From Telmatactis stephensoni (taxonomy: Eukaryota; Cnidaria; Anthozoa; Actiniaria; Isophelliidae): a stretch of DNA of 64,000 bases. Below are positions 31,215 to 49,110 of the stretch, one piece after another (positions within the stretch are counted from its first letter, which is position 1; each line of letters begins with the position of its first letter). The notes under the pieces are model-generated. The model did no database searches, was not told the DNA's origin, and saw only the letters and a list, made by a program, of their open reading frames with translations. Both the position numbers and the translations under genes were made by a program. The stretch lies in contig JALIZF010001831.1 of the NCBI GenBank assembly GCA_029948255.1, forward strand, positions 744,001 through 808,000, given 5' to 3'.

Positions 31215-31366
31215 CAGCAGCAGTAAGGGTTTGTTCCGTTTGGACCTTGAAATATGCAGGCCCTGCCTGCGTAGATCGAGGGGTGTCGGCAGCAGGGATT
31301 CACTGCACCAATTATGGCGTTTTGGGGCCCGGAGATTAAAAATGGCAAAACCCCTTACTGCTGCTG
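31215..31366. repeat. left terminal inverted repeat (152 bp)
   Basis: Begins CAGCAGCAGTAAGGG and matches the reverse complement of 48959-49110 at 151 of 152 positions. The mismatch is at 31351. The arm itself ends in CCCTTACTGCTGCTG, so it has its own short inverted ends, and it contains an inner GCAGGCCCTGC hairpin. Confidence 0.95.
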
Positions 31367-31394
31367 GTAGAGACTATAAAATAACTATTATATA

Positions 31395-32033
31395 ATGTTG
31401 TGTGACTGTAACGCGCCTGCCGTGACCTATGAAAGTTATAAAATGTGTTCTGATTGTCTTAAGCGAGAACTTATACCGCCGCCGCCAAGACGCTTAAAGT
31501 GTTGTGGTGATAAGATGACCATAGAGAAAGATACATCGGCCGTGTGTGAAATCTGCGGCCGTATATTTTTTAATGTTGTGCCTTGTGCGACCCGCGATCA
31601 ATATTATGCTAACGGCGCTGCTAGAAAGACGCCGTACAGGAAAATTATTTACTTTAGAAAGTGGATGCGAATTATATTAGGTTTAGAGCCGGTCTATGTT
31701 GATAAGAAAACCTTACGGCGGATAAAAGCTCATCTTTGTTACCAGAGAAAAAAAGAACCCACGCCACAGGATTTGAAAAAGACTCTGAGAAAATTAAAGT
31801 TGCAAAAATACAATAAGGGCATTTCTTGTCTGTTGTCAGAAATTACAGGCGAAAAAATTCCCGACGTTTCTATGGAAACTATGAATAAGGCTAAATGGAT
31901 GTTTACTCAGCTGCAGGATAAGAAAATCCCCTATTATCCTGATATAATCTATGACATATTTTACGAAATTGATCTAAGCCACCCAATCTTAGCTTGGATT
32001 CCTAGGCGACTAACACACGTCACAGTCATATGA
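31395..32033 (+). CDS. VLTF3-like late transcription factor
   Basis: 212 residues. The N-terminus has Cys pairs (C3/C5, C18/C21, C36-C37, C51/C54) that can form zinc ribbons. The C-terminal two thirds is basic and helical (FRKWM, LRKLKLQKY, MFTQLQ), with the arrangement of the poxvirus/NCLDV VLTF3 family, which activates late genes in the cytoplasmic factory. The start is preceded by ATTATATA directly before the ATG. It is the first gene inside the left repeat and points inward. The family call rests on motif order and spacing, not on a computed profile score. If right, it links to the ATG-overlapping promoter motif of the neighbouring genes. Confidence 0.65.
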   Translation: MLCDCNAPAVTYESYKMCSDCLKRELIPPPPRRLKCCGDKMTIEKDTSAVCEICGRIFFNVVPCATRDQYYANGAARKTPYRKIIYFRKWMRIILGLEPVYVDKKTLRRIKAHLCYQRKKEPTPQDLKKTLRKLKLQKYNKGISCLLSEITGEKIPDVSMETMNKAKWMFTQLQDKKIPYYPDIIYDIFYEIDLSHPILAWIPRRLTHVTVI

Positions 32034-32162
32034 TCATTCTCAACCAATTAAAAACTAACCCATAAATTGACCAAGCTGGCTGCCGCGACCAAACTTTTTT
32101 GGTTTTGGTTTTGGTTTGGGTTTTGGTTCAGTTTACAATAGTAGCCAACTACTGCTAACATT
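32034..32162. other. short gap with TTTTGG repeat
   Basis: Contains five to six GGTTTT units at about 32097-32128, then the start of the next gene. No gene seen. Confidence 0.5.
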
Positions 32163-32552
32163 ATGCCTGGTTTGGATGAACTTACACGGAGGTATGAAGC
32201 GGTTTGCGGGGAAATAGATGATTCTATTGTAATTATGAAAGATATTGCTGGTGGGAAACCCATTTTCACGTTTAATATGGAAGATTCATTTACTGCTCTA
32301 CAAAGATGTAATACAGACCTTGAAGTGGATTTTGCTGACTCTACCATTCTCCTGATGGGGGAATACATAAAACTTTTAAAGGCGGAGGGAAGGAGAAGAA
32401 ATATCTTGAAACAAATTGAATCAAAGAGAAAAAGAAATGGGTTAAAAGAAGAAGTGAAGAAGAGGAGAAGAAACCAACGTATGGCTACTACTACCCCGTA
32501 CACCGTGCTTACAAGAAAAGCAAGCAAGGAAAAGATCGAGAAAAATGACTAG
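32163..32552 (+). CDS. unknown basic-tailed protein
   Basis: 129 residues. An acidic to neutral helical N-terminal half is followed by a strongly basic C-terminal half (RKRNGLKEEVKKRRRNQR), suggesting nucleic acid binding or packaging. ATTATG precedes the start, a weaker form of the element's start motif. It is convergent with the next gene. No family recognised. Confidence 0.6.
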   Translation: MPGLDELTRRYEAVCGEIDDSIVIMKDIAGGKPIFTFNMEDSFTALQRCNTDLEVDFADSTILLMGEYIKLLKAEGRRRNILKQIESKRKRNGLKEEVKKRRRNQRMATTTPYTVLTRKASKEKIEKND

Positions 32553-32673: not shown

Positions 32674-33276
32674 TTAATGATTTAGTTTTTGTTTGATTTC
32701 TTGCATCGCTTCTTGATATATTTTCTTGCGTAGTTCGGGATCGTCTTTTTTAAAAACTTCGACGCTTTTTTGTCGGATTTCATTTTTTAATTGCTCGTAT
32801 TTATTGGACTCGGCCATAATTAAAGCGAATTCATTCTCATCGATTCTGTTATTGTGAAGAGCTTTCGAAATGAGGTCTGAGATTGTATTTATTTTAGATT
32901 TGCATAACATTGTTGTTTTCTCATGTTTTGAAACCTTTTGGGTCAATTTTTTAGTCGCTACCGTGGCGACGGCTGAAATAATTCCACAGAGTCCCCCAAT
33001 CGCGCTTAAAGGGATTCCTACTACAATTCCGGGGCCCGTTAAAGACGTGGCAATCCCCGAACTTGTTAAAAGGGCCGATAAAGTACCGGAAGATAAAGCA
33101 ATGGCGTGGGTCACGGAGCGTGTTTTATTGTATTTTTTACGGACGCCGTCGTAATGTTTGACCTCGGCGCCTAATTCAGAAAGGATCATATTGATTTTTT
33201 GAAGTCGAAAACTTTCTCCATCAGAGATGACAGGGTATAATGGGGCAGAGGGTTCTTCTTGTATCACGTCGGTCAT
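32674..33276 (-). CDS. two-helix membrane protein, unknown function
   Basis: 200 residues. There is a cytosolic-like N-terminus with a PSAPLYP motif (PTAP-type late domain resemblance), then a Gly/Ser/Ala-rich hydrophobic hairpin at about residues 55-110, then a long charged helical C-terminus. The membrane hairpin suggests a virion or host-membrane protein. Starts 8 bp from the divergent 503-residue gene, inside a perfect palindrome. I believe homologues occur as unannotated proteins in other invertebrate genomes, but have no score to give. Confidence 0.7.
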   Translation of the reverse strand: MTDVIQEEPSAPLYPVISDGESFRLQKINMILSELGAEVKHYDGVRKKYNKTRSVTHAIALSSGTLSALLTSSGIATSLTGPGIVVGIPLSAIGGLCGIISAVATVATKKLTQKVSKHEKTTMLCKSKINTISDLISKALHNNRIDENEFALIMAESNKYEQLKNEIRQKSVEVFKKDDPELRKKIYQEAMQEIKQKLNH

Positions 33277-33284: not shown

Positions 33285-34796
33285 ATGGTACAATACGAAT
33301 GGCACAGATTTAGGACGGCCTACCCGCACGCCGATTTTAAAAAGTTCTCTGCCGGGCCTCAGAGCATCGAATTCGAACACGATGGAATTGCCGTCGATGT
33401 GTTTAGAGAAGATATTACGCCAGATGGGCCTTTTCCAATGGCAGTGCATCACTATGGCGACTCAAAATTAAATGCGGCGCTTTCAAAGGCCTTGGGACCT
33501 AGAGATCTTAAAGACCGCCATGAAACGCAGGCTAAAGCTCCTGGAGGTTTTCCTAAGGCTCTGGAGCTGACGAAGGCCGCGTATGCCATAGGGATGGAGA
33601 AGCCAGCGGAGTTTGATGTGGATGCGATGGTGATTTATGTGGCGCCCGAAGAAAAGTTTACGATGAGGCCGCGGCGGATATTTACGGAGGTGGTGTTAAA
33701 ACATACGACGGCGGCGGAGGCTCATAGGTGGTTGAGGGGGCCGGATATGAGTTATTGGCCGCAGCAACTTTCGTTTGCCCTGTGGTGTGCGACGGCGGGC
33801 TGTGGCGTTGGCGTAGAAATGCATTACGAAGCGAGGGTAGACTCGTTGCTGAAGTTTCATGTTCTTTTTACCACTCGGCGCATTCTATCGCAGATGTCTG
33901 TACCGCTGCCGGGGGATGGTTATTTTCACCCTCTAGAGAATAAATACAATAAAAGCGCTTATCATAGAATTTGCAGGGAGTTTCAGATTTCGCCCAATAG
34001 CGATTTTCGTTTGAAAGGCGAGAATGGAGGCCTGGGGAGGATCTATAAAAAAATATTTGGCCTCGTGCATGACGTGACAGAGGCTTATGACGCAAAGATG
34101 GACGGCAAAAATGTATATCAGTGGCCCGGCGGCTTCTTTCATTTCAATGATGAAAGTGGCTCGTGGGGCGATCATGAGTTAGATCACATCTCGCCGCTGG
34201 AAAAGAAGCCTTATCTTTATTTTGCGCTAAGGAAGTCGAAGGGGCTTACCAAGGCGGGGCTGGCAAGGCTGAATCAGTCGATCGAGGCCTTTGTTTATAC
34301 GGTGCTGGGGGCGCAGGTGAATACAAGGAGTAGTATTGTAGGCGATGCCGGCTCTGCTACAGAAACGAGAGCGGTGTTTTTGAAATTGTTTGAAGATGCC
34401 ATAAAAGAGGCGGACATTTCTAAAAGCATACAGCGGTATCAGATGGCGGTTCAAAGTGCGAAGGTGCGGCTGGATTTTGCCGTAGCGCCTGGCTGCTGGT
34501 TGATGCCCAGCCATTTGATATTGAATGCGGGCAGTGTGGCGGGGTATAATAACAGGCTGCAAAGGGCGACGGCAGACATGAAGATGGGTGTTAATGAGGT
34601 GAATGTAGACACTAAGCAGCCCGTGCCTCATTTTGATAAGCCGCCGAAGAAAAAGCCACCGCCTAAAAAAGAAGTACCCACAAAGAAAAAGCCTATTAAG
34701 CCGCTGCCGACTATAAAAGAAGAATACGACCATGATCTTTTAAAGGGCGGCATTACTGCTGCGGCTGTTGGTTTGGGTTATTTTATGCTACGTTAA
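33285..34796 (+). CDS. large unknown protein with C-terminal membrane anchor
   Basis: 503 residues from MVQYEW. An upstream in-frame ATG at 33240 is rejected because it lies inside the divergent gene and the TATATAATG motif marks 33285. The protein is a large mixed alpha/beta body to about residue 435, a Pro/Lys-rich linker (PPKKKPPPKKE) and a terminal hydrophobic helix before the final LR. Size and anchor suit a virion-associated or entry-related structural protein, but no domain is recognised. Third position GC is high compared with host genes nearby. Confidence 0.75.
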   Translation: MVQYEWHRFRTAYPHADFKKFSAGPQSIEFEHDGIAVDVFREDITPDGPFPMAVHHYGDSKLNAALSKALGPRDLKDRHETQAKAPGGFPKALELTKAAYAIGMEKPAEFDVDAMVIYVAPEEKFTMRPRRIFTEVVLKHTTAAEAHRWLRGPDMSYWPQQLSFALWCATAGCGVGVEMHYEARVDSLLKFHVLFTTRRILSQMSVPLPGDGYFHPLENKYNKSAYHRICREFQISPNSDFRLKGENGGLGRIYKKIFGLVHDVTEAYDAKMDGKNVYQWPGGFFHFNDESGSWGDHELDHISPLEKKPYLYFALRKSKGLTKAGLARLNQSIEAFVYTVLGAQVNTRSSIVGDAGSATETRAVFLKLFEDAIKEADISKSIQRYQMAVQSAKVRLDFAVAPGCWLMPSHLILNAGSVAGYNNRLQRATADMKMGVNEVNVDTKQPVPHFDKPPKKKPPPKKEVPTKKKPIKPLPTIKEEYDHDLLKGGITAAAVGLGYFMLR

Positions 34797-34816
34797 AAAT
34801 CGCAGATTTTTAGATT

Positions 34817-36256
34817 TTATATCTTTAACTTCTTTAAAAGTACGGCGCCTATAGCTACGACAAGAATCCAAATATTGTTGCCGACAAACTTCAGCAATTC
34901 GCCGCCGGTCTTCAACACCAAAGATAAGACGCTGCCTAATAGACCTGGCACGGCGGCGGCCATTTTTTTACCTAGCGCGGTCAGGCCTTGACCTATTTTT
35001 TTAACACCGGCGCCGACACCTTTTAAAGAGGTTAATATGACTCCTATGACACTACTTATAGCCACGGCAAAGGCCGCAGGAATGCCATATTTCAAAAGGG
35101 CTCGTTTTATTTTTTCTTTGGTGGTGAGGCCTAATTCACGCTCTAATTTATTTTTTTCTTTTTTAAGCTCGGCGACTCTTTCTTGAAGGGAGGTTAGTTC
35201 TTCTTGGGCGGCTGTGCGTTCTTCTTCAGGGCGATTTAGGTCGTTGATGATTTGTTGTTTTTCGTTAATGTTATGCTCTAAATCTTCTATCGCCTGTGTC
35301 GTTTGCCTTAGCCGCTCTTCAAGGGTGCGGACTCTATGTTCTAACTCGGCCTTTTCTGTTTGCGCGGTCGCGAGTTCAGAACGAAGGGTGGCAGCGTCAG
35401 TTTTGGCCATCCCTAACTCTTGGGTGGTTTCGTCTAGCGCCGCGCGGGCACGGTCTCTTTCCCGCAGGGCTTTGTTGGCCTCGGTGACAATGATATTTCT
35501 TTCTTCTAAAACAGAATTGTAGCGTTGTTCGGCATCTTCGAGGAAGTTTTCTGTCTCCAGGTTGTGGCGTTCTTCGTTGGCCGCCAAGGCTTTTTCGTAT
35601 TCTTCCTGGACGCGATCAAATCGGGATTGTAGATTAGACAGGGCCTGGGTTTTGACCGCAAGGGCTTGTTCGGCCTCGCCTAGTTGATCTTCTAGGTCGA
35701 TGGCTCTCTTTTGTAATGCGATCTTTGCATTATGCTCTTTCAATAGCTCTAAGAGGCCTTTCGATGCCATTTTAAATCCCTTGAGCGCCTTTACCGTTTC
35801 TGTAACCTCACCCTCTTTAGTAAAAAGTTTTTGTGGCTTAGTCCAGGCGTCTTTTTTCTTTTCGTTTGGAAAAGAGATGTAAACTTGGCCCTTCTGCTCA
35901 GATAGTCTTACATAATCGAAGTCAAAGTGTTCGTATAATTCTAAGAGGCGCTCTTTGGCGTTCTCGATGGGGCTCTCGAGCAGCCAGTCGGCCATTTCAT
36001 TTTCTTCTAGCGCGTCAAACGTTTTCAACTGTAAGTATTCAGGAAGTCGGCGGCCCTGGTTACGTGACTTCCACTTTGCGCCCAAAGACTGCCAGACAGA
36101 TCGAGCCCTGTCTCCAAACCTACGCCTAAGCTTATCAAAAAGGCCCTGGGGGTCTGCGTTTTCATTCGGTATAAGAGATTCATATTCCTCGTCATTGATG
36201 TCTTCTTGGCCTTCTTCGGCGGTGGGATCAAAATCCGGATCTATTTCTCCTTCCAT
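34817..36256 (-). CDS. coiled-coil protein with amphipathic/membrane C-terminus
   Basis: 479 residues from MEGEID (the frame is open upstream, but the TATATATGG motif and the divergent MCP start fix 36256). There is an acidic N-terminus, then a coiled coil over about residues 175-380 (heptads rich in E, L, A, R), then about 100 residues with three hydrophobic or amphipathic Gly-rich segments ending in KKLKI. This could be a minor capsid or membrane-active virion protein. The coiled coil gives spurious matches to myosin-like proteins and should not be read as such. Confidence 0.75.
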   Translation of the reverse strand: MEGEIDPDFDPTAEEGQEDINDEEYESLIPNENADPQGLFDKLRRRFGDRARSVWQSLGAKWKSRNQGRRLPEYLQLKTFDALEENEMADWLLESPIENAKERLLELYEHFDFDYVRLSEQKGQVYISFPNEKKKDAWTKPQKLFTKEGEVTETVKALKGFKMASKGLLELLKEHNAKIALQKRAIDLEDQLGEAEQALAVKTQALSNLQSRFDRVQEEYEKALAANEERHNLETENFLEDAEQRYNSVLEERNIIVTEANKALRERDRARAALDETTQELGMAKTDAATLRSELATAQTEKAELEHRVRTLEERLRQTTQAIEDLEHNINEKQQIINDLNRPEEERTAAQEELTSLQERVAELKKEKNKLERELGLTTKEKIKRALLKYGIPAAFAVAISSVIGVILTSLKGVGAGVKKIGQGLTALGKKMAAAVPGLLGSVLSLVLKTGGELLKFVGNNIWILVVAIGAVLLKKLKI

Positions 36257-36263: not shown

Positions 36264-37514
36264 ATGATCAGCTCAAAGATAGATCCCAGTATTCTGCCCA
36301 AAAAGACCGGTGGCTTAAAGGCTGAAAGGACTTTTCATCGCGTTACTTTTACGCCCTCTAGTGCAAACCCAGGGGAGACATTATACGTCAGCGTTCCCAC
36401 GCTCTCGGAAAATCTTCTCTTAGTGCCTGGCACCCTGGCGCTGCGGTTTGATTTGGCCATACAACCAACAACGGCCGACAAGCGCTATTGCGTTAACAAC
36501 ATAGGCCGCAACATCGTCAATCGCATGAAAGTTAAATTTGCCGGAGAATGTCTTTTAGATCTCAACCGCTATGACCTTTACCACACTTACAAAGATCTAT
36601 TCATGTTGCCCAAAGAGAGAGATGTGCTGGTGGAGCAGGGGATTGGCACTGATACCGTTAGAAAGATGAGAAGTGCTTCATCCAATAAGGGAAGTGATGC
36701 AGAAGCTACGGCGCTATCAACGGCCTATGGCACCAAATATGTCATCCCTTTGGATTTTGAAGTTCTGAAGACCCATGGTGTCTTTTACCCCAGAATCTTA
36801 TCATCTGATATGCAGTTTGAAGTGACGCTGGCGGACACCACTAACTTACTGCAGGGCACTGACTCGGCTTTGACTGGGGCGATTCACGACTACAGTATGA
36901 CCAATCTACAGCTGCAGTATGAAACCATTCACAGCGATACCTTAGCCCGCAGTGCCGCCGGTGAATACTCTGCTGGCAAGGCTTTTCTCTATGACCACGT
37001 GCATCATCACAAGACCATCCCCGTTCTAGACAAGACCCAAGATTTAATTACCGAAACGGTGAATATACCCCGCAGGTCTCTGTCTGGGCTGCTGCTGCTC
37101 TTCGTAAAGCCGTTTTCGGCCGGCCAGAGAGATTCAGAGAAGTTTGTCAATCCGAACATTACCGACGTCAAAGTCAATATCAACGGCGTTCCTAATAAGA
37201 TTTACTCGCAGGGCCTGAAGCCGGCCGACATTTACAAAGAAGTAGTAAGACGGTTTGGCGACCACATAAGCCCCCAGCAATTCTTTCATGGCAATAAATA
37301 TGCCCTATGGGTGGATCTAAGAACCTCAGAGGACAATGACATCCACGGCCAGGGCTTAAAACTGGTCAGCACACAAGACGGCGTCACTTTGGAGATAAAA
37401 CGCACAACAAATTCTAGCGCGGGCAATGATGACAAGATCAACTGCCACATCTTTGTCGTCGGCGATGCGCAAATGAACATAGAAGGTAATCAACTTCAGT
37501 CCATTGCCTATTAA
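36264..37514 (+). CDS. candidate major capsid protein (double jelly-roll type)
   Basis: 416 residues from MISSKID. The frame runs further upstream, but this ATG follows TATATA and lies 7 bp from the divergent start. Composition is beta-rich, with alternating hydrophobic strands and many N/D/G turns and no signal peptide, membrane helix or enzyme motif. Length, position beside other virion-like genes and co-occurrence with an A32-type ATPase fit a double jelly-roll hexon-like capsid protein. The C-terminal half is the more conserved-looking part (FFHGNKYALWVDLRTSEDND). The capsid call is inference from size, fold-like pattern and context. A structure prediction would decide. Confidence 0.6.
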   Translation: MISSKIDPSILPKKTGGLKAERTFHRVTFTPSSANPGETLYVSVPTLSENLLLVPGTLALRFDLAIQPTTADKRYCVNNIGRNIVNRMKVKFAGECLLDLNRYDLYHTYKDLFMLPKERDVLVEQGIGTDTVRKMRSASSNKGSDAEATALSTAYGTKYVIPLDFEVLKTHGVFYPRILSSDMQFEVTLADTTNLLQGTDSALTGAIHDYSMTNLQLQYETIHSDTLARSAAGEYSAGKAFLYDHVHHHKTIPVLDKTQDLITETVNIPRRSLSGLLLLFVKPFSAGQRDSEKFVNPNITDVKVNINGVPNKIYSQGLKPADIYKEVVRRFGDHISPQQFFHGNKYALWVDLRTSEDNDIHGQGLKLVSTQDGVTLEIKRTTNSSAGNDDKINCHIFVVGDAQMNIEGNQLQSIAY

Positions 37515-37788: not shown

Positions 37789-38598
37789 ATGATACGCGTT
37801 TTTGAAAACCCACAGCTAAATCTAAAACTCAATACCCTAAAAAAAGGAGATGAATTGTATTTTAAGGCAAAAGATGTTGCTAGGGCCTTAGGCTATGTTA
37901 GTGAAAAAAATGCTATAAGAGACCACGTATCTGAGGAGTACAAGAAATCCCTGTGTGATATAAGGGGGCATCGAAATAATGCCCCCTTGAATGAGCAGCC
38001 AAACACCGTCTATGTTACTGAGCCTGGTCTGTATGAGTTAATTTTTAGCAGTAAGCTGCCCAGCGCCATAGAATTCAGAAAGTGGGTGTTTTCAGAGGTA
38101 TTGCCGCAGATACGCAAAACTGGCTGTTATGAGTTCAAAAAGGATATAAGGGCCATCACGTGCTTTAAGATCGAAAATGAGTTTGACTTACATAAAAAAG
38201 TAATAGATTATATCCGCCGCTTTCATAATCTTCTCCTTGTCGCCGGTCTCGGAGAAAACCAAGATACCCAGCAAAAAAGGATACAAAGTTGGCAAAAGGG
38301 CTATCAGAAGGGGCAGCCAGATCTTATAGTGCAAAACGCCCATAAAAATTATAACGGCTTCTGTATAGAATTAAAGACGCCTAAGGGCACTGGAGAAGTC
38401 TCTGAAGCCCAAAAAGAAGCATTACGAAGATACGAACAGCAGGGTTATCTTACTTTGGTCAGCCATGACTACGACGAAATAGTTGATGCCTTAAAAGAAT
38501 ACTGCTGCGGCCTCAGGATGCCTTGCCCGCGGTGTCCAAGGCGCTTTAAAACCGAAGAAACATTGGCGGCGCATCTAAAGGTGATCCATCGTATTTGA
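37789..38598 (+). CDS. BRO-N / VRR-NUC nuclease / zinc-finger fusion
   Basis: 269 residues. Residues about 1-110 form a BRO-N (Bro/KilA-type DNA-binding) domain (LYFKAKDVARALGY, EPGLYELIF, FRKWVFSEVLPQIRKTG). Residues about 140-235 fit VRR-NUC, a PD-(D/E)XK nuclease fold, with QPDLIV, CIELKTPKGTGEVS and a following Q. A C-terminal C2H2 finger lies at about 245-266. BRO-N proteins are typical of large DNA viruses and phages. The nuclease could process replication intermediates or host DNA. Start context GATATACCATG. Confidence 0.8.
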   Translation: MIRVFENPQLNLKLNTLKKGDELYFKAKDVARALGYVSEKNAIRDHVSEEYKKSLCDIRGHRNNAPLNEQPNTVYVTEPGLYELIFSSKLPSAIEFRKWVFSEVLPQIRKTGCYEFKKDIRAITCFKIENEFDLHKKVIDYIRRFHNLLLVAGLGENQDTQQKRIQSWQKGYQKGQPDLIVQNAHKNYNGFCIELKTPKGTGEVSEAQKEALRRYEQQGYLTLVSHDYDEIVDALKEYCCGLRMPCPRCPRRFKTEETLAAHLKVIHRI

Positions 38599-38627: not shown

Positions 38628-38936
38628 ATGATCAGCGCCGCAGAATTTAACAATGCCATCAAAGAAGCCGAAACCATGACAAAATGGCGCGATTTAGAAG
38701 TCGGGCGCATTTATAAGATTGTGGACTATCATGTCTTTGAATCCGAAAGAATGAAGTTAACCCTCGAAGATGGCGATAATAATCTTTACACGATGTGGGC
38801 GCCGCAGCGGGTCAAAGAGACTTTAGAAGACCGCGATTATACGCATATCCGCAGCAATGGGCTCAAACAGGGCCGATGCAATGTCTATTGGAGCTTTAAT
38901 GCCGTTAAAATCGAAAAAAAAGATATGTTTTCTTAG
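38628..38936 (+). CDS. small unknown protein, possible OB-fold
   Basis: 102 residues, beta-rich (VGRIYKIVDYHVFESERMKLTLED then YTMWAP). This resembles small OB-fold-like proteins next to nucleic-acid enzymes, but the assignment is only by pattern. Start preceded by AAGATATA directly at the ATG. 29 bp after the BRO-N gene and 5 bp before the next start. Confidence 0.55.
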   Translation: MISAAEFNNAIKEAETMTKWRDLEVGRIYKIVDYHVFESERMKLTLEDGDNNLYTMWAPQRVKETLEDRDYTHIRSNGLKQGRCNVYWSFNAVKIEKKDMFS

Positions 38937-40160: not shown

Positions 40161-40480
40161 CATTATTATTTAGCCCAATCGGTTCTTCGTATTCTAACCG
40201 CGGAGAGAAAAAAACAGCAGCAACATTATTATTTAGCCCAATCGGTTCTTCGTATTCTAACCGCGGAGAGAAAAAAACAGCAGCAACATTATTATTTAGC
40301 CCATCTACTTTTTTTGTATTCTAACCGCGGCGACATTATTATTTAGCCCAATCGGTTCTTCGTATTCTAACCGCGGAGAGAAAAAAACAGCAGCAACATT
40401 ATTATTTAGCCCATCTACTTTTTTTGTATTCTAACCGCGGCGACATTATTATTTAGCCCAATCGGTTCTTCGTATTCTAA
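40161..40480. repeat. tandem repeat array at the centre of the element
   Basis: Units begin CATTATTATTTAGCCCA and end CTAACCGCGG. Two types alternate: a ~63-bp unit with CGGTTCTTCGTATT and a GAGAGAAAAAAACAGCAGCAA tail, and a 46-bp unit with TCTACTTTTTTTGTATT. The order is long, long, short, long, short, long. It lies between convergent gene groups, a place suited to termination, replication or recombination. Confidence 0.85.
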
Positions 40481-41254: not shown

Positions 41255-41257
41255 ATA

Positions 41258-41713
41258 TTAAAGAGATATGACCGATAAAGTGCTTATGGTTTTATGATTA
41301 TAATCATTATTTCTTTTATCTGTAAATCCATTTATCCTAAGTTTTCCCACATCATCGGCCCTTATTTGAACCTTAACCTTTTTCTTCACATCCGCAATCA
41401 TATGAAAAGTGACAACACTTAAGTTTTCTGAACTTTTAATGGACGGTTCAAATGAAAAATGCACAGGCTCTCTATTATCCGTCTTAGAGCGCATGGGCGG
41501 AAACGCTGTACCGTCGGCATCTACCAATCGAAATCCCGCATTCACATGGCTCGTAGTACTAATACAAATACTACAAAGAATTAATTTTCTGCCGGGATAA
41601 TTCACTGACACCGACAGCCCACTCACATCTTGCCAGGCCGCTTTATCATAATTTGCCTCTGTATCTAAAACCGTATAAACGCAATCTTTTCCTAATGTGT
41701 AAGGGTTGTCCAT
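41258..41713 (-). CDS. candidate virion surface/minor capsid protein, paralogue 2
   Basis: 151 residues from MDNPYTLGKD. The open frame to 41764 is rejected because TAATATATATGG marks 41713 and the MDNPY start matches the paralogue. Same beta-rich body without the Pro-rich tail, and it ends in SVISL shortly after HKTI. Stop lies 3 bp before the start of paralogue 1, so the pair is a tandem duplication with different C-termini. Confidence 0.6.
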   Translation of the reverse strand: MDNPYTLGKDCVYTVLDTEANYDKAAWQDVSGLSVSVNYPGRKLILCSICISTTSHVNAGFRLVDADGTAFPPMRSKTDNREPVHFSFEPSIKSSENLSVVTFHMIADVKKKVKVQIRADDVGKLRINGFTDKRNNDYNHKTISTLSVISL

Positions 41714-41718
41714 ATATA

Positions 41719-41928
41719 TTACATTGGAGCCCTCATAAAATCCACTATGACTTCTTTGCCCCATAGAGCCAAAGTAATCGCCGCCGATAGTCTTTCAGTG
41801 GTTTTAGCGGCGGCTATTTCTTCTTTGAGCCTTTCCACCTCAGCCCTTAGCTCTATGACTTCTTCTTCTAGGCATTTTTTTTCTTTTATAAATTCAACGG
41901 CCTTCTGTAGCTGTTCCACACTCATCAT
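41719..41928 (-). CDS. small coiled-coil protein
   Basis: 69 residues: heptad-rich (FIKEKKCLEEEVIELRAEVERLKEEI), with a short hydrophobic C-terminal segment. Two possible starts, 41928 or 41925. Divergent from the packaging ATPase with 5 bp between start codons. Could be a scaffold or oligomerising partner. Confidence 0.6.
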   Translation of the reverse strand: MMSVEQLQKAVEFIKEKKCLEEEVIELRAEVERLKEEIAAAKTTERLSAAITLALWGKEVIVDFMRAPM

Positions 41929-41933: not shown

Positions 41934-42539
41934 ATGAACCCTGAACATATTCCCGGCAATGCTCTAATAGTGGGCCCCACGGGCTGCGGCAAGACTAAAT
42001 TCGTCGTGGAGCAGCTATTAGGCCCTTTTAGATACAAATTTGACTATATTGTTTTACTTTGCCCCACCTACGTTAACAATAAGACCTGGGAAAACGTGGG
42101 CAAAGAAGATGATGATTTTTTTGTAGACATCTTAGACCCCAATGAACTCTCAACGCATTTAAAATTTTGGCATCGGCAGTGGGGGCACATCACCGAGACG
42201 CAAACGTTACTTATTCTGGATGATATTGCCTGCGGCGACGACGTGAAAAAACGCACTTCAGAGCTAGTAAAACTGGCCTTTTCCGGGCGCCATGATAACA
42301 TTTCTGTGTGGCTCCTATCACAGCAGCTGACAAGCGTCAGTAAGCCCTTTAGAGAAAATATCGGCTCTTTAGTGGTCTTCTACACGCCCAGCAAAAGCGA
42401 CCTAGAAACCATCCTTAGCGACTACGGCGGCGAAATAACCAAAGAGCAGCTACAAGAACATATGCGGCATTTAAAGGCCAATCAGTATTCTAAAATGATC
42501 TTTTCTCTAAGATATCCTTACAGCGTGAAAAATCTATGA
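41934..42539 (+). CDS. A32/FtsK-type genome-packaging ATPase
   Basis: 201 residues. Walker A GPTGCGKT at residues 14-21, Walker B LLILDD at 92-97, and a following LSQQ sensor-like motif at about 131-135. Length and motif order fit the compact packaging ATPases of Polintons, virophages and NCLDVs, which drive DNA into preformed capsids. The intact frame indicates recent function. Its divergent partner starts 5 bp away, and the next gene begins 14 bp after its stop. Confidence 0.85.
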   Translation: MNPEHIPGNALIVGPTGCGKTKFVVEQLLGPFRYKFDYIVLLCPTYVNNKTWENVGKEDDDFFVDILDPNELSTHLKFWHRQWGHITETQTLLILDDIACGDDVKKRTSELVKLAFSGRHDNISVWLLSQQLTSVSKPFRENIGSLVVFYTPSKSDLETILSDYGGEITKEQLQEHMRHLKANQYSKMIFSLRYPYSVKNL

Positions 42540-42553
42540 TTTTTCTAATATAC

Positions 42554-43081
42554 ATGAACATCGAAGAGCTATTAGATGAGCCGCCCACACAGCTGGGCGA
42601 TGATCAACTGAAAGAACAGCTTAATGTTTTAGTCAGCAGCGGCAAATGTAAAGAAATGATCGGCAAAGAACTGACCCATGAACAAGTCAATCAGCTGTCT
42701 GAAGCCGATGTGAAGAAGTTCTATAAGCGCTATGAAGTGGCCCTGGCCAGTAAAACCACAGACGCCGTCGCCGACAGCGCTATAAAGCTGGCCACTAAAC
42801 TACTTGGACTTGCACTGCCCATAGACGACGTCCAGCAATTACAAAAAGACTTAAGTGAGGACTATATCATCGCCCAAGAACTTAAGATCACTTGTGGCTG
42901 GTTGTCTTTAAAATGCGGCAAGTTAATGGCGTTGGCCAGCGGAGCACTTCACATAGCGCAGCACATCGACTTACAAGAACTTACGACGTCTTGGAGCGAC
43001 TTCAAGAAGTCACGACTAAGTCCGCCGCAAGTCACCACAAGTCCGCCACAAGAACTTGATCAAGTCGAGTCAACAACTTAA
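42554..43081 (+). CDS. unknown helical protein
   Basis: 175 residues from MNIEELLDEP. The upstream ATG at 42536 is less likely because it overlaps the ATPase end, and AATATACATG marks 42554. Helical, acidic N-terminus; two hydrophobic helices at about 68-85 and 112-135; Pro/Ser/Thr-rich tail. The DNA under the tail carries many AAGTC repeats. Confidence 0.6.
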   Translation: MNIEELLDEPPTQLGDDQLKEQLNVLVSSGKCKEMIGKELTHEQVNQLSEADVKKFYKRYEVALASKTTDAVADSAIKLATKLLGLALPIDDVQQLQKDLSEDYIIAQELKITCGWLSLKCGKLMALASGALHIAQHIDLQELTTSWSDFKKSRLSPPQVTTSPPQELDQVESTT

Positions 43082-43137: not shown

Positions 43138-43467
43138 ATGAGTGACACCGAGCAGAAAGAAGATACTACTACCCCCGCCGCGGCCGAACAAAAGATCACC
43201 AAGCCAAAGGCGCCCGGCAGAGTAGCGGCGGGAAAAAAGCTGGCCGAGCTGAATAAAAAGAATAAAGCCAAAAAAGACCCTTCTTCGGAATCTAGTGACG
43301 GCTGGGATATCAATCCGGGCTACGTCATCGGCGGCCTCGGCGTCTTAATAGCCGCAGGCAGCCTCTATCTGCAATGGAAATCACAGAAGCCCGCCGTGCA
43401 TCTTGAGCCCGTAATACACCATGAACCTAAAGAAAAAAAGCGCTCTAAGATCCCCGAGATGGAATAA
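43138..43467 (+). CDS. basic single-pass membrane protein
   Basis: 109 residues. A charged N-terminus with a Lys-rich stretch (RVAAGKKLAELNKKNKAKK), one transmembrane helix at about residues 60-77 (YVIGGLGVLIAAGSLYL) and a short basic cytosolic-like tail. Start TTAATATATG. First of a run of small membrane proteins. Confidence 0.65.
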   Translation: MSDTEQKEDTTTPAAAEQKITKPKAPGRVAAGKKLAELNKKNKAKKDPSSESSDGWDINPGYVIGGLGVLIAAGSLYLQWKSQKPAVHLEPVIHHEPKEKKRSKIPEME

Positions 43468-43491
43468 AAATCTCTTTGCAGTTAATATAGA

Positions 43492-43710
43492 ATGCCCTCT
43501 ACATTGATGAAGACCGCTGAAGAAGCCGCCGTACTTACTTCTCTCGTCGCCGCCGTCGGCTGGGTCGGCAAAAAGGCCCTAAAAGAAACCTTCACTGGCG
43601 ACCCCAGCAGCAGCGTGATGAATTACGTTAAAATGACCGCCGCCGTCGCCGGCAGCATCGCTTTGAGAGATTACCTGATCAAAGAAAAATACCTGCCCAA
43701 TAGTATCTAA
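43492..43710 (+). CDS. small two-helix membrane protein
   Basis: 72 residues with two Ala/Val-rich hydrophobic segments (about 12-26 and 45-58) separated by KKALKETFTGDPSSS. Start TTAATATAGAATG. Function unknown. Likely virion or membrane associated by context. Confidence 0.6.
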   Translation: MPSTLMKTAEEAAVLTSLVAAVGWVGKKALKETFTGDPSSSVMNYVKMTAAVAGSIALRDYLIKEKYLPNSI

Positions 43711-43733
43711 AAATCATAGATTTTTTAAATATA

Positions 43734-44159
43734 ATGGTTAGTGTCATCGCCGGAAGCATCGCCGCAGCCTTAGCCTTTACTGGCGCCAACTACGGCGGCC
43801 GCTATTTAGACAAACTGATTCACGGCGACAGTAAAAATGAATTAGCCATGGAAAGAAAACGCCACGATTTGGCCATGGAAGCCTATGAAAATGCCGTCGC
43901 CGCCTATAATAAAAAAAGGCAAGCTTATAGAGACTGGTTAGACCAAAATTACCGCGATAAAATGCAGGCCGATAAGAATTTCCAAAACACCGATTACGCT
44001 TTTAAGCTCTACGCACAGACGCATCCTCACTTTGCTCTGAAAAAGCCACCGCAGTTTAAAGATTATTACACACCTTCTAATAGGCAAAAAAATAATGAAT
44101 TAATGTTTCTAGGCATTTCAGGCCTGGCCATCGGAGGCGCCGTGGCCTATTATATATGA
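43734..44159 (+). CDS. small membrane protein with helical middle
   Basis: 141 residues: N-terminal hydrophobic helix (VIAGSIAAALAFTGANYGG), a long charged helical region (NELAMERKRHDLAMEAYENAVAAY as the core) and a C-terminal hydrophobic helix (LGISGLAIGGAVAYYI). Its stop overlaps the start of the next gene (ATGA). Start AAATATAATG. Confidence 0.65.
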   Translation: MVSVIAGSIAAALAFTGANYGGRYLDKLIHGDSKNELAMERKRHDLAMEAYENAVAAYNKKRQAYRDWLDQNYRDKMQADKNFQNTDYAFKLYAQTHPHFALKKPPQFKDYYTPSNRQKNNELMFLGISGLAIGGAVAYYI

Positions 44160-44620
44160 TCGTCTTTTTGAACAGCGACCAAAATCCGTTTACAACTTAT
44201 TTAAATCCGCCGATCAGAGCCCACAAGGTCCGACTCATAAGTTGCTCTTTGTACAATTCTTGGCATAATTTAATAGCCGGCTTTATAATGAAAGGCAGCA
44301 AGCAGCATCTCATTCCTAATTCGCATTACACGCCGCAGACGCTGGCCAAAGAACTGGCCAAACATGATGTCACTTTAACAACAGGGCTGCCCCACGAATG
44401 GAGCCTTACACACGACAAAAGCACCACACTGAATCAGCGCATTAAAGACCTGATCGGTTATAAAGTGGTGACGCTGGCCGGTCAAAATATCGACACATTT
44501 CATTGGAATGTCCCTTCTAATTATGAAATCCATTGTGACTTAGTTTATACATATGAAAATGGCAGTCGTTCGAATGTGATGGCTAAATTCCCGCCTAAAG
44601 GTAATCCCTTTGACCTGTAG
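44156..44620 (+). CDS. unknown beta-rich protein, possible minor capsid
   Basis: 154 residues, globular and beta-rich, starting MIVFLNSDQN. Overlaps the previous stop by 4 bp. Sits at the end of the structural gene run, so a minor capsid or vertex role is possible. No motif proves it. Confidence 0.5.
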   Translation: MIVFLNSDQNPFTTYLNPPIRAHKVRLISCSLYNSWHNLIAGFIMKGSKQHLIPNSHYTPQTLAKELAKHDVTLTTGLPHEWSLTHDKSTTLNQRIKDLIGYKVVTLAGQNIDTFHWNVPSNYEIHCDLVYTYENGSRSNVMAKFPPKGNPFDL

Positions 44621-44756: not shown

Positions 44757-45722
44757 TGCCTCGCGTCGAAGACAAACTTAAGAGAATTTATTATGGACCT
44801 CAAGGCTATTGGAGAGGAGCCTCGGCTATTAAGAAACTTGCTGTAGCGGCTAGAGTCTCTGAAGACACAGCGAAGAACTGGTTAAAAAAACAGACCCTCT
44901 GGCAGGTTTATCTTCCCGTTCCTAAATACATTCCTAGACCAGCTTTACCGTGAATGCTCCAAACGAAGTTCTCAGGCGGATCTGCTTTTCTTGCCGCACG
45001 ACAAGGTAAAGAGAAAAACTTACAAATATGCCTGACTGTCGTGGATCATCGCCAGCAGATACAAGGATGCTGAGCCCATAACCAGTAAGGATTCAGGAGA
45101 AGTCGCGGAAGCGCTAAGTAAGAATTTATAAGCGCATTTTGAAATGGCCTAAGCTGCTGCAAGTGGATGCGGGGACAGAGTTCATGGGCGCCGTCACTAA
45201 AACGCTGAAAGACACGATACTAAGTATAGGAGAGCCTGAAGCAGAGTACCACAGGGGTCAAAGCCTCGTTGAAAGATTTAATCGCACCCTAGCCGGAACG
45301 GTTGTTTGGATATCAGTATTGGAAAGAACTAGCAGATCCATCCCAAAAGCAACAGGGAGTGGGTGCAGAGACTTCCAGAGGTCATTTAAGGGCTTTAATT
45401 AATGAGGAAACAAGGGCAACGGGAATGAAACCTAAGGATGCCATAAAGAAGAAACACGTCGAACACAAATCCTACGTTAGGAGTTCAAGAGCAGTAGGAA
45501 TGAACGAAAAAATTACCACAGAATATAACAGTCAGATATTTGTATCAGCCTGGAGAACTGGAAGGAGGATCCAAAAGAGTACGGATCCTAATTGGTCTTT
45601 GAAAACTTACCAGATCTGAAAGTCCGTCACAAAAGAAGGACAGCCTGTGTTGTATTACTTAACAGACGGCCAAGCCGTGGATTTGTTAAAGAAGAGCTGC
45701 TCATCGTTCCCTGAAAATTCAG
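44756..45722 (+). pseudogene. rve-type (retroviral-like) integrase, broken
   Basis: The start (44756) gives an N-terminal helix-turn-helix-like segment (GASAIKKLAVAARVSEDTAKNWL) as found before Polinton-type integrases. After the first stop at 44951 the DDE core continues in changing frames: a QADLL-like block near 44980, VDAGTEFMG near 45163 and a Glu in SLVERFNR near 45266. Then the C-terminal region runs in yet another frame to about 45720. At least three frame breaks or stops. These enzymes insert the element into host DNA. This copy should not be active. Confidence 0.75.
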
Positions 45723-46104
45723 AGTAGTGCTGCACCACGCGCCTGATTACACTCTAAGCACGTCAAACGTATATTACCTACAGAGTGACCTTTCTTATTA
45801 TTTAAACGGTCCACAGAAAATTGCTGATCGTCGTTTGGTTCAAAATCCCAGAGTAGCGGTATGTTACACTTAGCACACCTTGCGTTGGGTTTATAAACAT
45901 CATCGACTGTGAGGTCAAATACCTTATTTTTTTCCTCATCAATTCTCTTATACCGTTGTAATTTCTTAAGTATATTTGCTTTAGCCACTTCAGGCGGAGT
46001 GTTATCGTACCGTAATTGCGGACCCCACGCTCTTTTTAGTTGTTTGTAGTATTCAACTCTGCTAACTGCAGTGTAAATAAGATTACTCCAGCATAAACGC
46101 TGGT
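45719..46104 (-). pseudogene. C-terminal part of the replication protein (helicase motif VI + HNH)
   Basis: In frame from about 46104 to 45722 after the stop that ends the longer ORF. It holds a helicase motif VI-like YTAVSRV, a basic linker and an HNH-type nuclease (CAKC, FSVDR, GH, NIRLTCLECN). The frame differs by one base from the polymerase/helicase ORF, so it is cut off from it. A separate short start at 45988 is possible but has no TATATA motif. Confidence 0.65.
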
Positions 46105-48315
46105 CTATAATCCATAAGTTTCTTTAACTGTTAATCCCTGAGCACTGTGTACTGTCATACAATAACCTAACCGCCAGTCCGGCGAAGAAATAACCTTTTC
46201 TACTACAGATAGCGGCACCCAAGCCCTATCGTGTGTTACAGCATTTTCTAAGATTACCTGCGTATAAGGCACCGTAATTGATTTTTTTTGTCTTGTATCG
46301 CGCGGCCTATAAGACACCGGCACCAAATGCGAAGTAAACTTTTCCCTATGCTGCCTTAACAGATCTTTTTCAATTCTCGCCTGCACAGCCCTTTTACTAC
46401 TAAGCACCAAATCCGTCGGCCGCCACTCCTGCAAAAACACCTCATAATCCCGCGCCTTCATATTTTTCCTCATACATTTACACTGCTCAACATCGGTTAA
46501 ACCTCTCAATGCCCTTTTAAACTTCTTTATCTGCTCATCTTTACTTCTATAATCGGCTTTTATTTCTTCATGGTAAAACTCCTTTAACCACTCATGCGGC
46601 ATTTCTCCCGCAATAGGCGGCGGCTGACACGGATCGCCCGCAAATATCACCTGCGTTTTCCCCTCTAAGAACTCTACAAACTCCTTCAGCATCGGCAGCG
46701 GCACCGTACAAATCTCGTCCCAAAGAATAACCGGCGGGATCTCTTTTATAGCCTCAGGCACCCACTTTTCGCCATTATAACGGAAAAAGCTATGATAAGT
46801 TTGCGCATCATGCCCCTGCGCCACCAATTCCCTTTCTAACCGATGCGTCGGCGTCAACACTTTGACCTTCGGAAACAAATTCAGCACTCTCGTCGTCTTC
46901 CCACTTCCGCCGGCCCCATAAAGATACGAAAACCTCTTATAGCTTATAGGATCTTTGACGCTAGGCCATATTTCCTGCGTCGCCTCTCTGTTGCCCTCTT
47001 TATGATTACCGCAGTATTTCACCCTTTCTCGCCACGTCCTCATCTCTTCATTTTTTATACGCCATTGTCCACTTTCGGCCATCTCATCTTTGACATAATA
47101 CATTTTCATCTTTTCCAACACCTCAGGCCTTATATACAAACTATCCGTGGCCACCCTAGGTATATCTTCCTTATCAAACCGCAGCAGCATCGTCAAAAGA
47201 TTAATATGAGCATACGACAACATAGAAGCCCTTAAATGATAATACTGCGCCCTATAATCGTTATAATAACACAACACTTTGCCATCGCCGCCAAAGTCAT
47301 CTGTCCGCACCATAGTATTTTCTTTATGGGCCTTTTTTATTAAAAAGTTCAGCTCTTCATCATCAGTTATCAGCCGCCGCTGCATATGTTTTTCTCCTGC
47401 TCTGGCGCCCTGCGTAAACTTACCAATAACAATCCGCGCCGCATGATTATCCGCCGGCAGCCACTGTGTCTTATCACCGTGGCAAAGAATGGCCTCGTGC
47501 GCCGTATACTCTAAAAGTCCACGCTCTTCAAAGAACTTTAACAACGGCACCGGAATCCAACCTTTCTCTTCTATATGCTTACCATACCACGCGTAAATAA
47601 TAGGATGAAGCCCCTCTTTAAACTTCCACGCCGTCAACTTCACAAACCCATTAGCCGGCGCCTCATAACGCCCATCTAAAGCCACCCTAAAGAACTGCGA
47701 ATCCGGATGTCCATACCGCTGATAATAAGACGCCGCATCTCCCAGTCCCTTAAAGCTGGCCGGATAACAATGCTTCATGTCCAGCGACACATAATCTTCT
47801 TTTTTGTACTCCATATTCCAAAGACCGCCATGACCATGTTCAACGCACGCCAACGCAATCTCCGGCAACTCTTTCGGCGTCGGCTTCCAATGATTTCTTT
47901 TTCTCGCGGCCACAAAGTCTAAAGAACTACTACAAAATACCTCTTCTCTAAAATCCTCGCCCAATATCTCACAGGCCTTTCTTATTTTTTCATCCTCCAC
48001 CTGCGGCCGATAAAGCGTCCCATCCTGCGTAATAAACTGCGTCCCCTCCGCATCTAGCAGCCATATAGAATTCTCTTTAATAAAATCACTGCCATCACAA
48101 AGAATATTACCGTCAATGTCAAATTCCGTCCACAGCGGATTCACATCTTTATACACTTCTACTCTCTTTTTCTTCGGAAACCTCACATCTCTCCACGCAT
48201 GACCATTATGCTGATAAATATTTATAGCCGGTCCATTGCCTCTATACTTATCTGTGCCAGAATAAATAAACCCGCCCATAATGTCTAGCACAACAATGCG
48301 CCTCTTTATAGCCAC
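46105..48315 (-). pseudogene. family-B polymerase / SF1 helicase fusion, central part
   Basis: 736 residues in one frame. Polymerase: motif A-like SLDMKHCYPASF at about 178, motif B-like KFTQGARAG at about 300, motif C-like VATDSLYI at about 390. Helicase: Walker A GAGGSGKTT at about 467, Walker B ILWDE, motif III GDPCQPPP, motif V-like TVHSAQGLT near the end. The frame ends at 46105 before motif VI, which lies in another frame, and the N-terminal part lies in a third frame upstream. Such fusions would couple unwinding and synthesis in genome replication. Two frame breaks make this copy a likely pseudogene unless they are assembly indels or recoding sites. Confidence 0.75.
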
Positions 48316-48907
48316 TTCTAATTTCTTTATTGCTTCTATAGTACCGCCACACCTCTGTGTATTTTTTTCCCATGTCCTTATAGGCCTTTTTTCGTTCGTC
48401 AGTTAAACTGCCGCCTTTCGTAGAGTCTGTAAAATATTCTCTAATAAGTTTGGCGACACAGTTGCCGGGATGTCTCATCGGCTGTAGCTTTTCTGCATCG
48501 GGCTCTTTTATTTTATAACCCAAGTAAATAACCACGGTTACAGGATACGCCTCATCGTAATACAAAGAGTCAATGCCCACTAAAGCGCCGGGCCTAGTAT
48601 TTTTATTCAAGATAAATAGATCTTTACGATTACTTGCCCGAATAGGATTTCTCCCCTCTTCAACTATCCACTGGCGGCCATCGTATTTTATAAATGCTAA
48701 CTGCAGACGAAAATCCCCTTCGGGCAGTCTATTAATAATATCTTCCGCGCGTTCTTCAGTCATCGAAGCATCTGTATTTTTTTCTATAAACGTTGTAAAA
48801 ACTATATCTGCATTTGTGTTATCGATTACATTCTTTCTGAGACGCGCTATTTCTTCATTTGCAATAGGAGGTAACTCGCTTTGTAATAGCCAGTCAATAG
48901 CGTCCAT
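48248..48907 (-). CDS. N-terminal part of the replication protein, separate frame
   Basis: 219 residues from MDAIDWL, with the start at TAGATATATGG. The sequence is open to 48248 and overlaps the polymerase ORF by 68 bp in another frame. The overlap includes a run of seven A near 48368. No exonuclease motif is clear; it may hold a priming or N-terminal polymerase domain. It begins 51 bp from the right repeat and reads inward, mirroring the VLTF3-like gene on the other side. Confidence 0.55.
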   Translation of the reverse strand: MDAIDWLLQSELPPIANEEIARLRKNVIDNTNADIVFTTFIEKNTDASMTEERAEDIINRLPEGDFRLQLAFIKYDGRQWIVEEGRNPIRASNRKDLFILNKNTRPGALVGIDSLYYDEAYPVTVVIYLGYKIKEPDAEKLQPMRHPGNCVAKLIREYFTDSTKGGSLTDERKKAYKDMGKKYTEVWRYYRSNKEIRSGYKEAHCCARHYGRVYLFWHR

Positions 48908-48958
48908 ATATCTATATATATTTTATATTCAATAAACAATACCAACCGACGATGTCTC

Positions 48959-49110
48959 CAGCAGCAGTAAGGGATTTTGCCATTTTTAATCTCCGGGCCC
49001 CAAAACGCCATAATTGGTGCAGTGAATCCCTGCTGCCGACACCCCTCGATCTACGCAGGCAGGGCCTGCATATTTCAAGGTCCAAACGGAACAAACCCTT
49101 ACTGCTGCTG
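48959..49110. repeat. right terminal inverted repeat (152 bp)
   Basis: Reverse complement of 31215-31366 with one mismatch. Outer end CCCTTACTGCTGCTG at 49110; inner end CAGCAGCAGTAAGGG at 48959. Flanking AAA on the host side matches AAA before the left repeat. Confidence 0.95.

What the first reader, a model, noticed from the sequence alone, without database searches (positions are those of the whole stretch)
31215..49110. Complete virus-like element with a mosaic gene set
Seen: 152-bp inverted repeats with one mismatch around about 25 tightly packed, intronless genes of higher GC than the flanks. Known: PolB, packaging ATPase, jelly-roll capsid and rve integrase define Polinton-like viruses and adintoviruses. 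Inferred: the added VLTF3-like factor, BRO-N/VRR-NUC protein, polymerase-helicase-HNH protein and small membrane proteins, without a recognisable protease, point to a lineage apart from classical Mavericks.
Basis: partly seen in the sequence, partly recalled or inferred. Interest (0 to 1): 0.95.

Follow-up and report, generated by a model that had tools for sequence, protein, structure and literature searches.

The report
Polinton-like provirus with giant-virus-style promoters
A small DNA virus has inserted itself into this eukaryotic genome; it carries capsid, copying and packaging genes plus a giant-virus-type gene switch, and many closely related copies with open capsid genes sit elsewhere in the same genome.

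Summary
A 17,894-bp element (31216-49109) has 152-bp terminal inverted repeats (one mismatch), a 5-bp target duplication, about 20 packed genes and higher GC than its flanks. It is an integrated polinton-like virus (PLV), not a classical Maverick. The replicase has the published Tlr1-type layout (vOTU-like region, polymerase palm, SF1 helicase, HNH-like end). The capsid model is a double jelly-roll; A32 ATPase and VLTF3 pass Pfam cut-offs; rve integrase is broken here but recognisable in three other copies. The host genome holds 62 such repeats, at least 8 end-to-end copies and 71 full-length stop-free capsid genes. Copies differ mostly at synonymous sites in replicase and integrase, so they spread recently under selection; but in none of 7 copies examined is the replicase frame unbroken, which may be assembly error. 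Two features I found unreported in my searches: a TATATA motif abutting 14 of 20 start codons (16 of 565 other ATGs), as near start codons of asfarvirus and its kin, beside a VLTF3 gene; and terminal repeats predicted to fold into branched hairpins. Host probably a hexacoral (COX1 recognised by recall). New variant of a known kind.

The parts
31211..31215 (.). left target-site duplication GAAAC
   Evidence: abuts the TIR; same 5 bases follow the right TIR
31216..31367 (+). left terminal inverted repeat; 14-bp inverted repeat at its own two ends, branched hairpin predicted
31395..32033 (+). VLTF3-like late transcription factor, 212 aa
   Evidence: PF04947 E 2.6e-9, 37.5 bits over cut-off 25; ORF kept in 6 of 6 left ends examined
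32163..32552 (+). 129-aa protein, unknown
   Evidence: no Pfam match
32674..33276 (-). 200-aa protein with hydrophobic stretch, unknown
   Evidence: only sub-threshold Pfam matches
33285..34796 (+). conserved core protein (518-aa ORF begins at 33240; ATG at 33285 is preceded by TATATA)
   Evidence: 335 relatives; AF2 model pLDDT 74, no PDB fold match at E up to 0.001
34817..36256 (-). 479-aa coiled-coil protein with C-terminal hydrophobic segments
   Evidence: sub-threshold coiled-coil Pfam matches only; hydrophobic segments by eye
36264..37514 (+). [quoted passage not shown]
   Evidence: 828 relatives; AF2 pLDDT 87.7; Foldseek best iridovirus and PBCV-1, also Sputnik and mavirus MCPs
37789..38598 (+). 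BRO-N + VRR-NUC + C2H2-like finger protein, 269 aa
   Evidence: PF02498 E 1e-27, PF08774 E 4.9e-5 at its cut-off
38628..38936 (+). 102-aa protein, unknown
   Evidence: no Pfam match
39341..40027 (+). C2H2 zinc-finger protein, 228 aa
   Evidence: PF12171 E 7e-11
40081..40480 (.). tandem repeats (23-, 63- and 110-bp units)
40664..41254 (-). 196-aa protein resembling its neighbour 41258-41764; candidate minor capsid (inferred)
   Evidence: similarity seen by eye; no Pfam match
41258..41764 (-). 168-aa protein, candidate minor capsid (inferred)
   Evidence: no Pfam match
41719..41928 (-). 69-aa charged protein, unknown
   Evidence: ORF; not scanned
41934..42539 (+). A32-type packaging ATPase, 201 aa
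   Evidence: PF04665 E 1.3e-15
42536..43081 (+). 181-aa protein, unknown
   Evidence: no Pfam match
43138..44159 (+). three small proteins with hydrophobic segments (109, 72, 141 aa)
   Evidence: ORFs, segments by eye; no Pfam match over a cut-off
44156..44620 (+). 154-aa protein
   Evidence: 154-aa ORF also in L016; 190-198 aa form in L009, L017, L018; not seen at 120 aa or more in L015, L019
44756..45620 (+). rve-type integrase gene, frames broken in this assembly
   Evidence: aligns to the integrase ORF of copy L018, which matches rve PF00665 E 1.5e-8; pieces
45722..48907 (-). vOTU-like / pPolB palm / SF1 helicase / HNH-like replicase (Tlr1-type layout); in three frames in this copy
   Evidence: ORFs 48248-48907, 46105-48279, 45722-46105; AAA_30 E 1.7e-7; 152 relatives, some in one frame
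48958..49109 (-). right terminal inverted repeat
49110..49114 (.). right target-site duplication GAAAC

Best explanation
An integrated PLV of the Tlr1-helicase type, one of a recently active multi-copy family in this genome. Shown: ends, 5-bp duplications at independent sites, capsid fold by model, packaging ATPase, VLTF3, helicase and motif order of the replicase, selection on replicase and integrase, start-codon TATATA motif. Inferred: the rve integrase pastes linear DNA into chromosomes; the polymerase-helicase copies it from the ends by protein priming, perhaps helped by the hairpin-forming repeats, which also keeps both repeats alike; VLTF3 recruits an RNA polymerase (host Pol II or that of a co-infecting large DNA virus) to TATATA sites at the start codons; ATPase and capsid proteins make particles.
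For: 62 repeats with the same palindromic ends, reversed control 0; 8 end-to-end copies readable in the printed part of that list; duplications of 5 or 6 bp in 5 of 8. 35 different outer flanks among the 40 ends examined. 71 full-length stop-free capsid genes by my count among 106 matches, 100 of 182 candidates scored. Substitutions lean to third codon positions: replicase, 6 copies, syn/nonsyn 22/18, 38/19, 34/21, 59/29, 58/27, 65/34; integrase, window against L018, 30/4. Capsid fold. Replicase layout in relatives and in print. TATATA: 14 of 20 starts against 16 of 565 other ATGs, Fisher 9e-16; 10 of 16 without the four less certain starts, 3e-11; kept in other copies. Both repeats of a copy share the variant class at 24-27 in 8 of 8 copies.
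Against: No particle, transcript or excised form was seen. In the window copy and in all 6 other copies examined the replicase frame is interrupted before the end seen in relatives; no copy with an unbroken replicase or a proven full integrase was seen. The window's integrase indels (12) are far denser than in five other copies (1 to 4), which a uniform assembly error rate does not explain. 3 of 8 end-to-end copies lack a 5-bp duplication. The synonymous lean is weaker in the capsid (11/15 to 31/23 over 8 pieces). Pfam gives no PolB match and HNH only E 0.3; palm, vOTU and HNH rest on motifs and the published layout. The 518-aa protein has no known fold. TATATA is missing at 6 of 20 starts.
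Confidence: 0.82

Rival explanations
1. A fossil: an old, decaying endogenous family with no active member left.
For: Broken integrase and replicase frames in the window copy; replicase interrupted in all 6 other copies examined; degenerate capsid copies elsewhere.
Against: 71 full-length stop-free capsid genes; synonymous lean and no stop-making substitution in the integrase beside 12 frame-breaking indels, a pattern that assembly indels explain better than decay. The Roco gene nearby also jumps frame between overlapping open frames at 11174-11199 and 11655-11662 (by eye).
Confidence: 0.15
2. A classical Maverick/adintovirus with extra genes.
For: rve integrase in other copies, AG...CT ends, double jelly-roll capsid, A32-type ATPase.
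Against: Replicase carries a fused SF1 helicase and gives no PolB match in Pfam; no Ulp1 protease found; 5-bp duplications in 4 of 8, 6 bp in 1. A true DNA_pol_B_2 remnant lies separately at 58367-60246.
Confidence: 0.04
3. Contamination or chimaeric assembly joining a free virus to host DNA.
For: Several repeats sit within about 1 kb of contig ends.
Against: Target duplications at different sites; the window lies in a 911,632-base contig; 35 distinct flanks among 40 ends.
Confidence: 0.02
4. The 152-bp repeats are a separate short transposon (MITE) that happens to flank the genes.
For: Each repeat has inverted ends of its own.
Against: In the 40 ends examined the inner sequence is one of only four types, all seen next to element genes or their variants; duplications flank the whole element.
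Confidence: 0.02

Closest known systems
Tlr1 element and PLVs with Tlr1-like helicase
   Same: pPolB palm without exonuclease + SF1 helicase + C-terminal HNH or GIY-YIG, vOTU; Tlr1 itself has rve integrase (PMC11071308, passages), ATPase and capsid proteins (PMC4642659, passages)
   Different: VLTF3-like gene; start-codon TATATA; palindromic hairpin repeats; probable animal host. No Tlr1 sequence was compared here.
Oxyrrhis marina PLV (OmPLV)
   Same: BRO-N fused to VRR-NUC, A32 ATPase, SF1 helicase-polymerase fusion, multi-copy endogenous (PMC12721341, passages)
   Different: OmPLV has the helicase first and a full exonuclease, and a tyrosine recombinase with no rve detected (same passages)
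Polintons/Mavericks and adintoviruses (Eupolintoviridae)
   Same: rve integrase, AG-start inverted repeats (Polinton side recalled), double jelly-roll capsid, ATPase
   Different: helicase-fused replicase, no Ulp1 found, mostly 5-bp duplications
Endogenous polintoviruses of stony corals (Stephens 2024)
   Same: probably the same host group
   Different: paper not held; relation not tested
Late transcription system of Nucleocytoviricota, incl. mriyaviruses
   Same: VLTF3 (PMC11253617, passages); TATATA near start codons in asfarvirus, faustovirus and kaumoebavirus (PMC5974111, passages); poxvirus TAAAT without leader (PMC5294985, passages)
   Different: 18-kb integrating element with a PLV-type replicase; VLTF2 not found by Pfam

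Membership tests
PLV with Tlr1-like helicase | pPolB palm + SF1 helicase fusion lacking exonuclease | tested here: met
   helicase by Pfam; in 36 relatives of 1000 aa or more fixed patterns found: palm A motif 21, palm C (ATDS) motif 31, Walker 33, helicase motif VI 27. Palm by motif only; absence of exonuclease judged from missing Pfam match
PLV with Tlr1-like helicase | vOTU Cys and His before the palm | tested here: inconclusive
   NCV and HN-HA columns at least 90% conserved among 21 rows; H.GHAW in 25 of 36, GNC(V/I)A in 3 of 36 relatives, others have LNCVAQ; no structure made
PLV with Tlr1-like helicase | double jelly-roll capsid and packaging ATPase | tested here: met
PLV with Tlr1-like helicase | PLV-clade capsid or polymerase in a tree | not tested
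   no named PLV, Tlr1 or Polinton sequences were fetched
Polinton/Maverick | pPolB with exonuclease | tested here: not met
   no DNA_pol_B match in the main ORF or the other two pieces; helicase fusion instead
Polinton/Maverick | rve integrase | tested here: met
   3 of 3 other copies match PF00665, one over cut-off; window copy broken
Polinton/Maverick | Ulp1-type protease | tested here: not met
   none among 20 window sequences scanned (the 69-aa ORF was not scanned) nor in the pieces
Polinton/Maverick | 6-bp target duplication | tested here: not met
   5 bp in 4 of 8, 6 bp in 1 of 8, fewer in 3 of 8
Nucleocytoviricota (mriyavirus-like) | VLTF3 and VLTF2 | tested here: not met
   VLTF3 met, VLTF2 not found by Pfam
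Virophage lifestyle | dependence on a large DNA virus | not testable with these tools
   only indirect: VLTF3 and late-type promoter motif

The most novel reading that the evidence does not exclude
A dormant virophage-like provirus of an animal: its genes are wired to a giant-virus-type late switch (own VLTF3 plus TATATA at the start codon, no RNA polymerase gene among the sequences scanned), so it would wake when a large DNA virus infects the animal cell and could act as an inherited antiviral, as mavirus does in a protist. Its ends would be hairpin-forming repeats, a replication design not described for PLVs in what I read.
Probability: 0.2. Interest if true: 0.88.

Novelty: new variant of a known kind. 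Interest (0 to 1): 0.62.

Why it matters
The mriyavirus paper (2024) states that VLTF2 and VLTF3 were not detectable outside Nucleocytoviricota (PMC11253617, passages); here VLTF3 sits in an integrating PLV with a matching start-codon motif, so the question whether small viruses share or borrow the giant-virus late transcription system becomes testable. The family is large and recent, with many open capsid genes in one probably animal genome, which gives natural material for transcription, particle and co-infection surveys.

Tried and rejected
Viral-contig scans with the capsid and polymerase, and genome contigs with the capsid, found no relatives. PDB sequence searches with the capsid profile, VLTF3 and ATPase gave nothing useful. 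Foldseek of the 518-aa model gave no match with E up to 0.001. A 7-mer screen of upstream regions was not clearly above its null (top count 5; 8 of 300 nulls reached 5); the position-specific test was set up after seeing those upstream sequences. Considered and rejected: MITE origin of the repeats, contamination, classical Maverick. Dating by repeat divergence was dropped because the repeats vary far less than the genes.
Full report
What is there. The element runs from 31216 to 49109 (17,894 bp). Its 152-bp inverted repeats differ at one base and are flanked by GAAAC on both sides. GC is 0.439 against 0.381 and 0.370 in the flanks. I count 20 genes on both strands; their ORF lengths, overlaps counted and integrase left out, sum to 83% of the element.

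Genes. Pfam gives VLTF3 (E 2.6e-9), A32 ATPase (1.3e-15), BRO-N (1e-27) with VRR-NUC (4.9e-5), C2H2 fingers and a superfamily-1-type helicase (AAA_30, 1.7e-7). The capsid scores below the cut-off with Capsid_N (0.0084), but an AlphaFold2 model (pLDDT 87.7) matches iridovirus, PBCV-1, Sputnik and mavirus capsids (Foldseek E 1.2e-17 to about 2e-12); many named rows of the BFVD list are NCLDV capsids, with an adintovirus and virophages among them. The 518-aa protein is a conserved partner (335 relatives; several of its contig lengths recur in the capsid list, by eye) without a known fold. None of the ten sequences has a match over a cut-off; two of these are pieces of integrase and replicase. Calling 40664-41764 minor capsid is inference.

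Replicase. The gene at 45722-48907 lies in three frames in this copy. Two relatives 86% identical to the middle piece and one at 63% have it in one frame of 1043-1068 aa. In the 36 listed relatives of at least 1000 aa, fixed patterns found the palm A motif in 21, the palm C (ATDS) motif in 31, the Walker motif in 33, helicase motif VI in 27, the H.GHAW pattern in 25 and GNC(V/I)A in 3; others carry LNCVAQ, and the NCV and His columns are at least 90% conserved in a 21-row alignment. This order, the missing first Asp of motif C and the Cys-rich C-terminus fit the Tlr1-like helicase, i.e. pPolB-S1H, of Krupovic et al. (PMC11071308: abstract and passages). HNH scores only E 0.3, so that label rests on the Cys pattern and on the paper. 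Named sources among the 120 relatives listed of 152 include sea slugs, a freshwater mussel, a coral, arbuscular mycorrhizal fungi and MAGs labelled Candidatus Thiodiazotropha; the 518-aa list names Nematostella.

Copies. The window is part of a 483.5-Mb genome. The repeat has 40 scored hits from 175 candidates, 32 at 100% and 8 at 99%. A pattern for the palindromic repeat finds 62, and 0 in the reversed control; the printed part of that list contains 8 end-to-end pairs of 17.4-18.2 kb. Duplications directly abutting the ends are GAGAT, TAATT, GTGCTC, TAAAG and GAAAC in 5 of 8; 3, 1 and 0 bases in C436, C71 and C593. C71 has right-type sequence inside both repeats, and C593 shares its right flank with five other contigs, so both look rearranged or duplicated. 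The capsid protein has 106 matches, 100 of 182 candidates scored; by my count of the table 71 cover residues 1-416 without a stop, 62 of them at 94% identity or more. Some contigs may be alleles or duplicated blocks, so loci are fewer than gene copies.

Selection and frame breaks. In 6 copies the replicase differs from the window at 40-99 sites, mostly third positions. Among 8 capsid pieces the lean is weaker: synonymous/nonsynonymous 15/9, 11/15, 14/12, 13/12, 23/14, 23/22, 7/6, 31/23 (C239 over 1132 of 1251 bases). In the integrase the window differs from L018 at 34 sites, 30 synonymous, none making a stop, yet has 12 frame-breaking indels; five other copies have 1 to 4. Decay would not spare the substitutions, so most of these indels are probably assembly errors; against this, they crowd in the window copy. 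In all 6 other copies examined the replicase frame is interrupted before the end seen in relatives, so an unbroken replicase was not seen. Full-length capsid ORFs are in 5 of 8 fetched pieces; one piece (L027) was cut by my coordinates, and that copy is full length.

Mosaic left end. VLTF3 is an open frame of 196-212 aa in 6 of 6 left ends. In one it is 99.8% identical in DNA, in five 82-85% over the aligned part, while capsid genes of 8 copies are 95.7-98.9% identical. C239 has capsid 98.9% and VLTF3 82%; C593 has capsid 96.9% and VLTF3 99.8%. The simplest reading is that ends are exchanged between co-resident lineages.

Start-codon motif. ATATA or TATAT lies within 14 bases before the ATG in 14 of 20 genes, against 16 of 565 other ATGs in the element (Fisher 9e-16) and 28 of 927 plus-strand ATGs in the flanks; a looser motif sits in the last 10 bases in 16 of 20 and in 0-2 of 20 in each of five farther bins. 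Two starts (518-aa protein, capsid) are not the first ATG of their ORF, and integrase and replicase are broken; without these four, 10 of 16 starts carry it (3e-11 against the same control). Among all ORFs of at least 100 aa, spurious ones included, it is 9 of 23 inside and 1 of 45 in the flanks. In other copies, where the gene start could be located, it is present for capsid 7 of 7 (8 pieces given), VLTF3 6 of 6 (6), 200-aa protein 4 of 4 (6), replicase 6 of 6 (6), integrase 4 of 4 (6), coiled-coil protein 6 of 6 (8); these copies are related, so this is conservation, not replication. In asfarvirus TATATA lies mainly 0 to -20 from the start codon, in faustovirus 0 to -50, and for the asfarvirus capsid gene the -2 to +2 stretch of an A/T-rich promoter with TATTT and TATATA is most critical (PMC5974111, passages); poxvirus late promoters use TAAAT at the start without a leader (PMC5294985, passages). 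Together with VLTF3 the simplest reading is a giant-virus-type late switch. I found no mention of such a motif in PLVs: PMC12220804 and PMC10120064 have no 'promoter'; the listing shows virophage promoter papers that I did not read.

Terminal repeats. The outer 14 bases recur inverted at the inner end of each repeat: 4 matches in the window, 0.02 expected. As single-stranded DNA the repeat folds at -34.7 kcal/mol against -21.8 +/- 3.0 for shuffles, z -4.33, with a closing stem and side arms. Most single-base variants fall outside pairs of the predicted fold, but they are few and no compensatory change was established. The shape recalls adeno-associated virus ends (recall); whether it works in replication or binds integrase is open. 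Both repeats of a copy share the variant class at 24-27 in 8 of 8 copies, as expected if one end is copied to the other.

Host. A contig with COX1 split by a stretch that holds a LAGLIDADG-like frame (by eye) uses TGG and no TGA in the first COX1 part; a second contig has a COX1 copy with stops. The protein reads like hexacoral COX1 from recall; no database comparison was made. Bellas et al. found cnidarian capsid genes to be the only metazoan ones outside the main Maverick cluster (PMC10120064, passages), and stony-coral PLVs are cited in PMC12220804.

Verdict. A real, recent, multi-copy PLV family of the Tlr1-helicase type. The architecture is known; VLTF3 with a start-codon motif and hairpin repeats make it a variant worth testing. 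Literature searches on PLVs, Tlr1, VLTF3, corals and promoters were made; some listed papers that mention both VLTF3 and PLVs (PMC12945077, PMC13037468, PMC11633385) were seen only in listings. Also seen in passages: PMC11071296, PMC7805220, PMC10328495, PMC4642659, PMC12451622.

Noticed in passing
window 58367-59080 and 59572-60246 (also 50888-51241, 57159-57776): Remnants of a different, classical Polinton-type DNA polymerase: two similar neighbouring pieces match DNA_pol_B_2; the other two pieces look alike by eye but have no Pfam match.
   Followed up: partly
window 9795-13393: Host Roco (Ras-like/COR) gene with frame jumps between overlapping open frames, suggesting assembly indels or pseudogenisation.
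   Followed up: partly
window 17187-20167 and 22159-24617: Two long arrays of a 54-bp tandem repeat, open in several frames.
   Followed up: no
G000 C593, C1325, C1299, C404, C397, C40: Six contigs share the same outer flank; five of them also carry the same degenerate capsid pair further on: a duplicated block or alleles.
   Followed up: partly
G000 C71:570385-588242: End-to-end copy with right-type sequence inside both repeats and no target duplication; end exchange or rearrangement.
   Followed up: no
L009, L015, L017, L018: These copies have about 350 bp more than the window, L016 and L019 just before the integrase; in L009, L017 and L018 the 154-aa gene is longer.
   Followed up: partly
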